Shown: positions 29,316-32,702 of the stretch, one piece after another
Numbering within the stretch: the first letter of the stretch is position 1
How the letters are laid out: each line of letters starts with the position of its first letter
Assembly: GCA_903847605.1 (NCBI GenBank)
Contig: CAINED010000059.1
Location: 124,001 to 188,000 of the forward strand
Origin: an uncultured Hyphomicrobiales bacterium
GTDB lineage: Bacteria > Pseudomonadota > Alphaproteobacteria > Rhizobiales > Beijerinckiaceae
DNA: 64,000 nt
Direction: 5' to 3'
Position numbers and translations under genes: made by a program
Notes under the pieces: model-generated
The model's database searches: none
The model's input: only the letters and a program-made list of their open reading frames with translations
Told to the model about the DNA's origin: nothing

Positions 29316-30335
29316 TTGCCCAAATTCGTCATCGCCGCCGCATTCTCTTTGCTCGCCTCGTCCGCGCTTGCTCAGGATTTCTACGCGGGCAAGCAGATCA
29401 GCATGCTCATCGGTTCAGGCGTCGGCGGCGGCTACGATGCCTATGCGCGTCTCGTCGTGCGGCATCTGCCCAAGCACATTCCGGGCAGGCCGAACATCGT
29501 CGCGCAGAACATGCCGGCGGCGGGATCGCTCGTCGCCATGAACCTTCTGGCCAATACCGCGCCGCGCGACGGGCTGACCATCGGGGCGGTGCAGACGCAT
29601 ATCGGCGTCGAGCCGATCATGGGCGTCACCGGCCCCGCGTCCAACGCGAAATACGACGGGCGCAAGATGAACTGGCTGGGATCGACGGCGAAGGAATTTC
29701 CGGTCGTCGTGATGTGGCACAAGTCGGGCATCACGACTTTCAAACAGCTCATGGAAAAGGAAGTCATCGTCGGCGCGAGCGGCGTTGCGACATCGGACGC
29801 GGTCTATGCGCGCGTGATGAACGAACTCATCGGCACGAAATTCCGCCTGATCGACGGCTACAAGGGCAATCCCGAAATGATCCTTGCGACGGAGCAGGGG
29901 GAAATGTCGGGCCGCGCCGGCTGGTTTTTATCCAGCCTGATGTCGACGCAAAAAGCGCCGCTCGACGACGGTCGGCTCAAGATCGTCGCGCAGGTCGCAC
30001 TGGAAAAGCATCCCAACCTGCAGGCCGTGCCGCTCGTCGGCGAATTCCTCGACTCCCCCGAGAAGAAAAGGCTGCTCGATTTCTCGCTGAGCTGGCTGCC
30101 GATGGGCCGCCCCTATGTTGCGCCGCCCGACGTGCCGGCCGACCGCGTGAAAATTCTGCGCGAGGCCTTCATGAAGGCGATGAAAGATCCGGAACTTCTG
30201 GCGGAAGCGGAGAAGCAGAATCTCGAAATACTGCCGATGTCGGGCGAGGATATTAACGCACTGCTCGACCGGCTCTATGCGACGCCGAAAGAGGTCGTCG
30301 ATCGCGTGCGCGAGATCATGCTGCCGAAGAAGTGA
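29316..30335 (+). CDS. tripartite tricarboxylate transporter receptor (TctC/Bug family)
   Basis: A 339-residue periplasmic binding protein: signal peptide MPKFVIAAAFSLLASSALAQ, then DFYAGKQISMLIGSGVGGGYDAYARLVVRHLPKHIPG and IVAQNMPAAGSLVAMN, the Bug-family pattern for carboxylate receptors. The start is a TTG at 29316 behind a strong AGGAGG. No TctA or TctB membrane gene is in the window, so its transport partner is elsewhere. The ligand is unknown. Confidence 0.88.
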   Translation: MPKFVIAAAFSLLASSALAQDFYAGKQISMLIGSGVGGGYDAYARLVVRHLPKHIPGRPNIVAQNMPAAGSLVAMNLLANTAPRDGLTIGAVQTHIGVEPIMGVTGPASNAKYDGRKMNWLGSTAKEFPVVVMWHKSGITTFKQLMEKEVIVGASGVATSDAVYARVMNELIGTKFRLIDGYKGNPEMILATEQGEMSGRAGWFLSSLMSTQKAPLDDGRLKIVAQVALEKHPNLQAVPLVGEFLDSPEKKRLLDFSLSWLPMGRPYVAPPDVPADRVKILREAFMKAMKDPELLAEAEKQNLEILPMSGEDINALLDRLYATPKEVVDRVREIMLPKK

Positions 30336-30352: not shown

Positions 30353-31489
30353 ATGCCTCTCCTCACACGTCTGATCGAAATCGGAGAGAAACTAGCCGCA
30401 AATCGCTATCGGAATGAAACAGATGTACGTGAAGCAATAGTACTTCCTGTACTTAGCGATCTCGGTTGGGATATCTTTGATACAGACCGGGTCCGGCGTG
30501 AGTACTCAGTTGGGGGCCGGCGGGTTGATTATGCTCTGTTTACAAATGCAACATCACCGTCGGTTTTTGTAGAAGTTAAAGCTCCAAACGCAGCCAAAGA
30601 CGGCGACAGGCAACTCTTCGAGTATGCTTTTCACGAAGGTGCTCCCTTTGCCATTTTAGTTGATGGAAGAGAGTGGAGCTTCTATCTGCCAGGTGAACAG
30701 GGAAATTACGCGGAACGACGGGTACAGAAAGTTGACATAACCGAACGTGATGCAAGTGATTCCTGCTCTGTCTTTGAAAGGTATCTGCGAGCCGATAGAG
30801 TTAAAGATGGAAGTGCTTTGCGCGATGCTAGGGAAGATTACAAGAGTGCGTCGAGATTGAGAGAGGCCGTGACTTATATCCCAAAGGCATGGGGCGAACT
30901 TGTAAATGAATCAGACGACCTTCTAATTGATTTAATCGCCGAAAAGGTCGTTTCGCTCGTGGGTTTTAGGCCAGATGATGAACAGGTTGAGGCATTTCTA
31001 GCGAAACTTCAAACTGAGAATTTGTCCAAGCCTTCCTCAGCTACGGAGAAGCGCAATAACAGCGCCTCTCTTGAAACGAGTCGTGTCACTCAACCGGACT
31101 TAACTGATATAAGGAAAATTTCATCGCAAAAAGGATTGCGACAAGTACCGCTGATAATTTTTGGAAATCGGAGCGAACATGCTGATGCCATATCGGCGTT
31201 AATTTATATACTCAAGTATTTCGCTTCTAGGGACAATAATTTTTTGGAAAGGTTTGCGGAAAAAGCACCTGGAAGAAGACGCAATCATATCTCCAAGGTT
31301 CGATCCCAAGTATACCCAGCCAAACCAGAACTAGAGATTTATACAACAGACGATCTAGGAGGCGGCTGGTGGCTTGGAACGAACATCGCCAACCGAGAGA
31401 AGGAGCGGTTGATAAAAATCGCCTGTGAAGTAGCGGGTTTCTCTTTCGGGCGCGACGTGCAAATTGAATTGCCCAATACTCATGGTTGA
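30353..31489 (+). CDS. lone HsdR-N-type restriction nuclease with an unassigned C-terminal domain
   Basis: A 378-residue protein. Residues about 15-150 match the N-terminal nuclease domain of type I restriction R subunits: TDVREAIVLPVLSDLGWD, GGRRVDYAL (catalytic Asp) and SVFVEVKAPN (E-x-K of the PD-(D/E)xK fold). A linker (about 190-265, Ser/Asn-rich) leads to a C-terminal domain (about 268-378) with GGGWWLGTNIANREKERLIKIAC, which I do not recognise. There is no helicase, methylase or specificity gene nearby. Its base composition is far lower in GC than its neighbours (two 60-base samples gave 42% and 32% GC), so it was probably acquired. The ATG at 30353 follows AAGGAG; a GTG at 30332 overlaps the preceding stop. 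Confidence 0.85.
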   Translation: MPLLTRLIEIGEKLAANRYRNETDVREAIVLPVLSDLGWDIFDTDRVRREYSVGGRRVDYALFTNATSPSVFVEVKAPNAAKDGDRQLFEYAFHEGAPFAILVDGREWSFYLPGEQGNYAERRVQKVDITERDASDSCSVFERYLRADRVKDGSALRDAREDYKSASRLREAVTYIPKAWGELVNESDDLLIDLIAEKVVSLVGFRPDDEQVEAFLAKLQTENLSKPSSATEKRNNSASLETSRVTQPDLTDIRKISSQKGLRQVPLIIFGNRSEHADAISALIYILKYFASRDNNFLERFAEKAPGRRRNHISKVRSQVYPAKPELEIYTTDDLGGGWWLGTNIANREKERLIKIACEVAGFSFGRDVQIELPNTHG

Positions 31490-31542: not shown

Positions 31543-32562
31543 TCACCCCCCGTTAATCAGCGCATCCGGTATCGTGTAGGTCTCCGCGCCACTGTCGATG
31601 GTGACGATGGTGTTGTCGTCCTGCCGGCTTTGCGTGACCGACTGCGCCGCCTGCAGCGATGATGCCTTGCCGGCGCTGAAGCCGAGCACGCGTTTTTGTC
31701 CCCTCGGCCCCGTGATGAAGACTGTCGCAATGCCCGTTTGCCCGCGCGTCACGCCGAAATCGCATTGCGTTGGCGCGGCAGATTCGAAGCTGCATGCGAT
31801 CTTTCCGGTGGCGTGATAATTCGTGCCGGGCACCAGCGCATCGTTCGGTCTCGGGTTGCTGCCCGGCGCGGCGCCTTCGCGCAGGAAGCGGCCCTGCACC
31901 CAGCCCTGCGCGCCGCCAGCCGACAGTTCGATGCGGCACCACCTTTCGCGTCCATTCATCCGGCAGCCGAGATTCCTGGCGGCTGCGCCATTCTCGATGC
32001 GGGTGATTGATGATGCTCGTGTTCGCGGCTCAGCGCGCACCGTGAGTTTCGCGCCTCGTCCAAGCCCGCGCACCTGCCAGTAATCGGGGCCGCCTGCGAG
32101 GCCATCGGCAAAGTCCGGCTTGGCCTGCGCCGCGCTCGGCGATTCGATCATCAGGGTGTAGCGGGCGGTTTCGTTGCGCCGCGCGGCGTTGCTCATCAAG
32201 TATACCTGGATGACGTAGTCGCCGGCATCAGCCACGGGCGCGTCAAACGCGTTGCCGGCGACAGAGCCATTGTGAAGAGCTTCCTCGCTGTTTGCCGGCT
32301 TGAGGTTGAAGTAGGAACTGCGGTTCGATGTCCGCATCGAAACCCGCAGGCGCTGGCCCGGCGCAACGGTCAGCCTGTAGTCCACGGACTGGTACCCGCG
32401 GATCGTGTCGTGCTGGATCGACCTCTGGGGATTTCCTGCCAAAGATACGGTTACGGTTCGAACTTCGGCAGTCTGCGCGTTCGCGGGACATTGGGAGGAT
32501 ATCGAAAGCACCGCGCACGCCGCGAACAGCCAATTCCGTTTCGCAATGATAGAAAGTCGCAC
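31543..32562 (-). CDS. secreted SH3-domain protein
   Basis: A 339-residue protein from a GTG at 32562 behind AGGGAG. The signal peptide is RLSIIAKRNWLFAACAVLSISSQCPANA. A pre-peptidase-like beta domain follows (DYRLTVAPGQRLRVSMRTSN, GDYVIQVYLM), then a bacterial SH3 domain about 185-255 (LTVRAEPRTRASSITRIENG ... GWVQGRFLREG), then a C-terminal domain with IACSFESAAPTQCDFGVTRG. The role is unknown, probably in the cell envelope. The alternative start at 32670 would precede the signal peptide by 36 residues. Confidence 0.8.
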   Translation of the reverse strand: MRLSIIAKRNWLFAACAVLSISSQCPANAQTAEVRTVTVSLAGNPQRSIQHDTIRGYQSVDYRLTVAPGQRLRVSMRTSNRSSYFNLKPANSEEALHNGSVAGNAFDAPVADAGDYVIQVYLMSNAARRNETARYTLMIESPSAAQAKPDFADGLAGGPDYWQVRGLGRGAKLTVRAEPRTRASSITRIENGAAARNLGCRMNGRERWCRIELSAGGAQGWVQGRFLREGAAPGSNPRPNDALVPGTNYHATGKIACSFESAAPTQCDFGVTRGQTGIATVFITGPRGQKRVLGFSAGKASSLQAAQSVTQSRQDDNTIVTIDSGAETYTIPDALINGG

Positions 32563-32702
32563 TCGAAACTCCCTGATTGGAAGCGGATGGACCAAATCAG
32601 ACTTTAACGCACTTCGATCCACCGCGGATTTGTCTGGCGAGACGGCATGGCGCAACATGTCCGGGCGCATGTCAACGCGATGACCATGTCGCAGGAGGCA
32701 AT

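What the first reader, a model, noticed from the sequence alone, without database searches (positions are those of the whole stretch)
30353..31489. A lone AT-rich HsdR-N nuclease gene as a one-gene island
The gene has a PD-(D/E)xK type I restriction nuclease domain but no helicase part of its own, and no HsdM or HsdS genes nearby. Its C-terminal domain of about 110 residues (core GGGWWLGTNIANREKERLIK) is not one I recognise. Hand counts of two 60-base samples gave 42% and 32% GC, far below the flanking genes, and the change in composition coincides with the gene. The nuclease fold is seen; horizontal transfer and a defence role are inference. This is the best candidate in the window for an undescribed activity.
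Basis: partly seen in the sequence, partly recalled or inferred. Interest (0 to 1): 0.7.

Follow-up and report, generated by a model that had tools for sequence, protein, structure and literature searches.

The report
Nuclease fused to SeqA-like DNA reader
A lone, probably acquired bacterial gene joins a DNA-cutting domain to a relative of SeqA, the E. coli protein that recognises half-methylated DNA, so it may be an enzyme that cuts foreign DNA by reading its chemical marks.

Summary
In detail: 30353-31489 (+) encodes 378 residues at 46.5% GC (adjacent genes 62-63%), with an HSDR_N-type PD-(D/E)xK domain, no helicase and no R-M partner in the window. A profile of 33 such domains hits five SeqA sequences in the PDB (E 7e-6 to 5e-5; next 0.29), Foldseek ranks five SeqA chains first, and the profile retrieves true SeqA proteins from genomes. 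A SeqA-only profile ranks 37 family members above the first decoy, though not the window protein itself. Catalytic residues are invariant in 33 of 33; SeqA DNA-contact positions 116, 118 and 150 are largely kept, 152 varies (Ala in the window).

65 relatives in at least 10 phyla, no conserved partner, patchy presence and an empty site in a genus-mate suggest a mobile stand-alone gene. Best reading: a modification-dependent (type IV-like) restriction enzyme with a new, SeqA-type reader. Function is inferred. Carriers are not depleted in Dam-family methylases (10 of 50 vs 31 of 194), so GATC methylation need not be the target. No description was found in the searched library.

The parts
30353..31489 (+). 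HSDR_N-SeqA-like fusion nuclease, 378 aa (alternative GTG start at 30332)
30416..30625 (+). PD-(D/E)xK core, residues 22-91: E22, R57, D59, E74, K76, Q87 and Y91, each identical in 33 of 33 aligned members
   Evidence: Pfam HSDR_N; Foldseek matches to DrdV, BpuSI and HsdR
31028..31135 (+). flexible linker, residues 226-261, pLDDT below 50
31124..31486 (+). SeqA-like C-terminal DNA-binding domain, residues 258-378
31271..31282 (+). G307-R308-R309-R310, aligned with SeqA G115-R116-T117-R118 (contact loop)
   Evidence: contact residues from PMC6225831
31379..31390 (+). T343-N344-I345-A346, aligned with SeqA T149-N150-T151-N152 (contact loop; N152 replaced by Ala)
   Evidence: PMC6225831
31543..32670 (-). 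flanking bacterial-SH3-domain gene, normal GC; also absent from the syntenic genus-mate region; not thought part of the enzyme

Best explanation
A stand-alone, modification-dependent (type IV-like) restriction endonuclease. The SeqA-type C-terminal domain docks on a short DNA site through its G-R/K-x-R loop and its T-N loop and responds to the methylation state there; the tethered HSDR_N PD-(D/E)xK domain, probably as a dimer, then cuts the DNA. No partner methylase and no ATP motor are needed. It guards its host against phages or plasmids that carry a methylation pattern the host lacks, and moves between lineages as a single gene. Shown: domain make-up, homology of the C-terminal domain to SeqA, intact catalytic residues, lack of a conserved partner, patchy presence. 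Inferred: DNA binding, methyl sensing, cutting, dimerisation, defence. Homology to SeqA I hold at about 0.95; the functional reading at 0.5.
For: SeqA homology: profile of 33 C-terminal domains against PDB sequences gives five SeqA sequences at E 7.1e-6 to 5.1e-5, next hit 0.29; Pfam SeqA in 26 of 33 members at E <= 1, best 1.2e-7; hhalign to E. coli SeqA E 1.3e-5, probability 81; Foldseek of the domain model (pLDDT 92.0) ranks five SeqA chains (3fmt A and B, 1lrr, 1iu3, 3sk7) first, probability 0.99-1.00, TM 0.55-0.61, all others at most 0.14; the profile finds SeqA proteins L132, L133, L134 and L143; reverse search ranks 37 family members or fragments above the first reversed decoy. Catalytic residues E22, D59, E74, K76, Q87, Y91 in 33 of 33. 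Contact positions: R116 = R in 23, K in 9 of 33; R118 = R in 30; N150 = N in 30. Stand-alone: the largest shared-neighbour group covers 4 of 65 loci; methylase genes found within three ORFs at 3 of 65 loci. Mobility. Own genome has no Dam match. Stand-alone occurrence is the argument used for winged-helix 6mA-dependent endonucleases (PMC11037411 section 15).
Against: No biochemistry. Dam-family genes are not rarer in carriers: 10 of 50 over cut-off (23 of 50 at E <= 0.001) against 31 of 194 (67 of 194) Verrucomicrobiota controls, so a strict taste for Gm6ATC in every member is unlikely. Position 152 is N in 15, S in 13, A in 3 of 33, and Ala in the window protein. Window protein alone is weak: Pfam SeqA E 0.083 to 0.14, below cut-off, no PDB SeqA hit by phmmer, and absent at E <= 10 from the reverse search. 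Foldseek E-values are not below 0.001 (6e-3 to 0.14). Neighbours are not clearly defence islands; most families among them occur once.
Confidence: 0.5

Rival explanations
1. The SeqA fold serves only as a sequence-specific DNA-binding module and does not sense methylation; the protein is a solitary site-specific nuclease whose host sites are rare, masked, or protected by an unlinked methylase.
For: Variation at position 152; no depletion of Dam-family genes in carriers; the own genome has an N6/N4 methylase of 213.8 bits that might protect an unlinked site.
Against: No conserved methylase in the neighbourhood of 65 loci; an unguarded site-specific nuclease that moves between hosts would kill many of them (inference).
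Confidence: 0.2
2. A replication- or repair-coupled enzyme that acts on the host's own hemimethylated DNA behind the fork, like MutH (a hemimethylated-GATC nicking enzyme; recalled).
For: SeqA's known ligand is hemimethylated GATC (PMC6225831 and PMC12707154 passages); the linker resembles SeqA's flexible linker (PMC6225831).
Against: Full-length gene in 3 of 101 relatives and 1 of 397 genomes of the order; cross-phylum mixing; own genome without Dam. A house-keeping role would predict steady presence.
Confidence: 0.1
3. A selfish or element-borne nuclease (homing-like, or used by a mobile element against rivals), not a host defence gene.
For: One-gene mobility; transposase or integrase-core genes next to a few members (2 each of 104 nearest neighbours).
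Against: No full-length relative in IMG/VR, in 50,697 phage records (8 partial) or 72,556 plasmid records (10 partial), at those sensitivities; no repeats beyond short chance-like ones at the edges.
Confidence: 0.07
4. A non-functional leftover of a restriction gene.
For: Several relatives are interrupted, e.g. L029, L063 and L080, so the gene decays often.
Against: Window copy: intact frame, ribosome-binding-like sequence, all catalytic residues.
Confidence: 0.05

Closest known systems
PD-(D/E)XK-wH type IV endonucleases (FcyTI, Psp4BI; PMC11037411, abstract, sections 15, 17, 29 and passages seen)
   Same: PD-(D/E)xK nuclease joined to a DNA-methylation reader, mostly stand-alone genes.
   Different: Their reader is a winged helix; here it is a SeqA fold. 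The section on 6mA readers lists YTH, ASCH, HARE-HTH and RAMA besides winged helix, not SeqA.
SeqA (E. coli; PDB 1lrr, 1iu3, 3fmt, 3sk7)
   Same: C-terminal DNA-binding fold and most of its DNA-contact residues; flexible linker before it.
   Different: SeqA's N-terminal oligomerisation domain is replaced by a nuclease; position 152 differs in the window; wide phylum range and no tie to Dam.
HsdR of type I restriction and type IIG nucleases (DrdV, BpuSI)
   Same: HSDR_N PD-(D/E)xK domain.
   Different: No helicase motor, no methylase or specificity part, 378 aa.
Lone HSDR_N proteins of bacteria, phages and plasmids (e.g. 'endonuclease', phrog_4225)
   Same: N-terminal nuclease domain.
   Different: The phage and plasmid matches and 19 of the 22 matching genomes align over the N-terminal part only.

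Membership tests
Type I restriction subunit HsdR | HSDR_N nuclease domain | tested here: met
   Pfam E 1.5e-11, over cut-off; 33 of 33 members
Type I restriction subunit HsdR | SF2 helicase/translocase motor | tested here: not met
   378 aa, no helicase family at E <= 10
Type I restriction subunit HsdR | HsdM and HsdS partners | tested here: not met
   no R-M model among 48 other window ORFs; linked type I genes at only a few of 65 relatives
SeqA | C-terminal hemimethyl-DNA-binding fold | tested here: met
   for the family; the window protein alone is below Pfam's cut-off
SeqA | contact residues R116, R118, N150, N152 | tested here: inconclusive
   first three kept in the window, fourth Ala; family counts
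SeqA | N-terminal oligomerisation domain | tested here: not met
   N-terminus is HSDR_N
SeqA | specific binding of hemimethylated GATC | not testable with these tools
   needs DNA-binding assays
Modification-dependent (type IV) endonuclease | nuclease domain joined to a reader-type domain | tested here: met
   HSDR_N plus SeqA fold; methyl reading itself untested
Modification-dependent (type IV) endonuclease | stand-alone, no cognate methylase | tested here: met
   methylase genes seen within three ORFs at 3 of 65 loci; motif screen, not exhaustive
Modification-dependent (type IV) endonuclease | host lacks the recognised modification | tested here: inconclusive
   target unknown; own genome lacks Dam, but carriers 10 of 50 against 31 of 194 controls show no Dam avoidance
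Modification-dependent (type IV) endonuclease | cuts modified but not unmodified DNA | not testable with these tools
   needs assays

The most novel reading that the evidence does not exclude
A hemimethylation-triggered restriction enzyme: like SeqA it ignores unmethylated and fully methylated DNA and binds only the half-methylated state. Invading DNA methylated in its former host becomes permanently hemimethylated after its first replication in a host without that methylase, and is cut only then, so the enzyme senses 'replicating newcomer' and not merely 'modified'. No restriction enzyme that demands the hemimethylated state is known to me (recalled).
Probability: 0.15. Interest if true: 0.88.

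Novelty: new variant of a known kind. Interest (0 to 1): 0.62.

Why it matters
If true, it adds a SeqA-type domain to the short list of adenine-methylation readers used by restriction enzymes, takes the SeqA fold well beyond chromosome-replication control, and gives a small single-chain enzyme family (65 relatives in one scan) that could be tested at once with Dam+ and Dam- laboratory strains. A hemimethylation-specific cutter would also be a useful reagent for mapping newly replicated DNA.

Tried and rejected
Ordinary orphan HsdR fragment: rejected, because the C-terminal domain is conserved across phyla with the nuclease. C-terminal domain as a new fold: rejected. R-M system with a linked methylase: not supported. 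Dam avoidance as support for GATC reading: tried, negative; the control is Verrucomicrobiota only while carriers span phyla, and Dam-family hits need not all methylate GATC. Viral carriage: none confirmed. Flanking repeats or attachment sites: only 10-16 base, chance-like repeats. Promoter and terminator scan gave nothing that I use. NCBIfam: no hit. PADLOC: only a weak MTase_I-model hit on the nuclease part. Single-sequence searches of the PDB found no SeqA. Papers with SeqA and HSDR_N together: none held; searches listed nothing on a SeqA-nuclease fusion in titles and abstract starts; of the listed papers I opened three (passages or sections of PMC6225831, PMC12707154, PMC11037411).

Rows dropped before counts: of 65 loci 12 with an ORF under 330 aa and 5 with odd or broken C-termini (L052, L067, L075, L083, L086) were left out, giving 48 loci plus the window for the tree, thinned at 78% identity to 32 loci plus the window for A2 and A3. 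Nine loci were left out of the Pfam and PADLOC tallies of neighbours; the clustering and motif screen used all 65.

Full report
What is there. The ORF at 30353-31489 (+) is real and intact: ATG with AAGGAG upstream, 378 residues. GC is 46.5% and GC3 40.5%, against 61.8% and 62.9% GC in the two adjacent genes; its codon usage is the most deviant of 41 window ORFs. Pfam finds HSDR_N (E 1.5e-11) and no helicase. No other window ORF of the 48 scanned matches a restriction or methylation model in PADLOC at 1e-15.

The C-terminal domain. By itself the window domain is almost invisible: Pfam SeqA at E 0.083 to 0.14, under cut-off, and no SeqA by phmmer in the PDB. With relatives it becomes clear. A scan of genome contigs gave 65 relatives. 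A profile of 33 non-redundant C-terminal domains hits five PDB sequences, all SeqA, at E 7.1e-6 to 5.1e-5, and the next hit is at 0.29. Members scanned singly match Pfam SeqA in 26 of 33 cases at E <= 1, best 1.2e-7. hhalign against E. coli SeqA gives E 1.3e-5, probability 81. The AlphaFold2 model of the domain (mean pLDDT 92.0) matches five SeqA chains from four entries first in Foldseek, probability 0.99-1.00, TM-score 0.55-0.61, E 6e-3 to 0.14; every other match has probability 0.14 or less. The full-length model (pLDDT 87.1) matches type IIG nucleases DrdV and BpuSI and an HsdR fragment with its N-terminus and SeqA with its C-terminus.

Two blind tests agree. The profile, run over 398 genomes of the phylum, hit 9: three SeqA proteins with the typical N-terminus (L132-L134), two SeqA-like short proteins of the same class (L130, L131), the own gene, a second full nuclease (L127), one domain at a contig start (L128) and one weak, broken hit. 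Over 288 genomes of another phylum (that of L034, titled Verrucomicrobiota) it hit 5: four genomes already in my set and one SeqA-like protein (L143). In reverse, a profile of four SeqA proteins only (three of them found by the first profile) was run against 2573 ORFs and their 2573 reversals: the first 37 hits are all members or fragments of this family, the first decoy comes at E 1.8. Most of those hits are individually weak (best E 1.1e-4), and the window protein is not listed at E <= 10.

Residues. E22, R57, D59, E74, K76, Q87 and Y91 are identical in 33 of 33 members, as expected of an active PD-(D/E)xK enzyme. SeqA's DNA-contact residues are Arg116, Thr117, Arg118, Asn150 and Asn152 (PMC6225831, passages; the original structure paper is not held). 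In the family the position of 116 is R in 23 and K in 9 of 33, 118 is R in 30, 150 is N in 30, and 152 is N in 15, S in 13 and A in 3; 117 is mostly K. The window has R, R, R, N and A.

Distribution and context. Full-length matches occur in 3 of 101 relatives, two of them in the genus, which counts 51 genomes; and in 1 of 397 genomes of the order, where 19 others match only the nuclease part and 2 only the C-terminal domain. In genus-mate G030 the order aminotransferase - TctC-type gene - MFS gene is kept with 128 bp between the last two, where the window has 2.9 kb holding the nuclease, an SH3-domain gene and a glyoxalase-like ORF. None of ten fetched regions with the TctC-type gene matches the window between 30339 and 33259; only two of them also hold the aminotransferase. 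The tree of 49 rows mixes 10 phylum labels: Verrucomicrobiota (17 rows) needs 7 changes and Pseudomonadota (13 rows) 9; starred branches force at least 4 and 5. Wrongly binned contigs could add to this. The relatives' genes are poorer in GC than their flanks by 5 points or more in 23 of 53 loci, richer in 5, similar in 25. No neighbour family is shared by more than 4 of 65 loci. DNA methylase genes were found within three ORFs at 3 of 65 loci (L034, L044, L065), by a motif screen that is not exhaustive. Neighbours are mostly unrelated, with some type I restriction parts and transposase genes.

How it most likely works. A nuclease without partner, joined to a domain whose known relatives read hemimethylated GATC, is most simply a modification-dependent restriction enzyme. 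The closest worked example is the PD-(D/E)XK-wH group, where the stand-alone habit was used as the same argument (PMC11037411 section 15). I hold this at 0.5. Against it stands my own test: Dam-family methylases are as common in carriers (10 of 50 over cut-off) as in a control set (31 of 194). Since a cutter of (hemi)methylated GATC should kill a Dam+ host, at least some members must read something else, or be tightly held, or not read methylation. The variable residue at position 152 would fit diverged targets. The own genome lacks Dam but has an N6/N4 methylase of 213.8 bits, which I take to be CcrM-like by recall only; hemimethylated sites of that enzyme could not be the target.

Bold reading. 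SeqA binds hemimethylated, not fully methylated or unmethylated, Dam sites, and Dam-methylated DNA entering a Dam- host becomes permanently hemimethylated at its first replication (PMC12707154, passage). Nothing here shows this; nothing excludes it.

Novelty. Eight literature searches found no paper on a SeqA-nuclease fusion in what they listed (titles and abstract starts only, except three papers opened). The library holds open-licence PMC papers only. The discussion of 6mA readers in PMC11037411 (section 29) does not name SeqA. I file it as a new variant of a known kind: reader-nuclease fusion, with a reader not seen there before.

Noticed in passing
L004:1210-1764 (+), L026:1495-2097 (-), L130:1489-2049 (-), L131:1225-1809 (+): Short stand-alone proteins with a SeqA-like C-terminal domain in genomes of the window's order or class; L004 also shows a faint SeqA N-terminal match (Pfam E 0.03).
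   Followed up: partly
L143:1372-2043 (-): A SeqA-like protein, N-terminal part included by eye, in a genome drawn from the phylum of L034 (Verrucomicrobiota by record title), outside the usual gammaproteobacterial range.
   Followed up: no
L026:2142-3166 (+): The SeqA-like gene of L026 lies beside what looks, by eye, like an Xre/RES-type toxin-antitoxin pair; not tested.
   Followed up: no
L003:128-1422 (+): Near one relative of the nuclease lie genes that look by eye like an AAA ATPase and an RloB-like protein, a defence-type pair; not tested.
   Followed up: no
L029:8001-9092, L063:5219-6346, L080:3006-4135: Interrupted copies of the fusion gene, with the C-terminal domain in a separate frame; decay or assembly error.
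   Followed up: no
window 31543-32670 (-): SH3-domain gene next to the nuclease is itself rare in the genus: the own full match and two partial ones in 51 genomes, yet its GC is normal (62.9%).
   Followed up: partly
window, one of 48 ORFs: One ORF matches the PADLOC Pycsar cyclase model at 1.5e-29; which ORF was not traced, and it may be an ordinary nucleotide cyclase.
   Followed up: no
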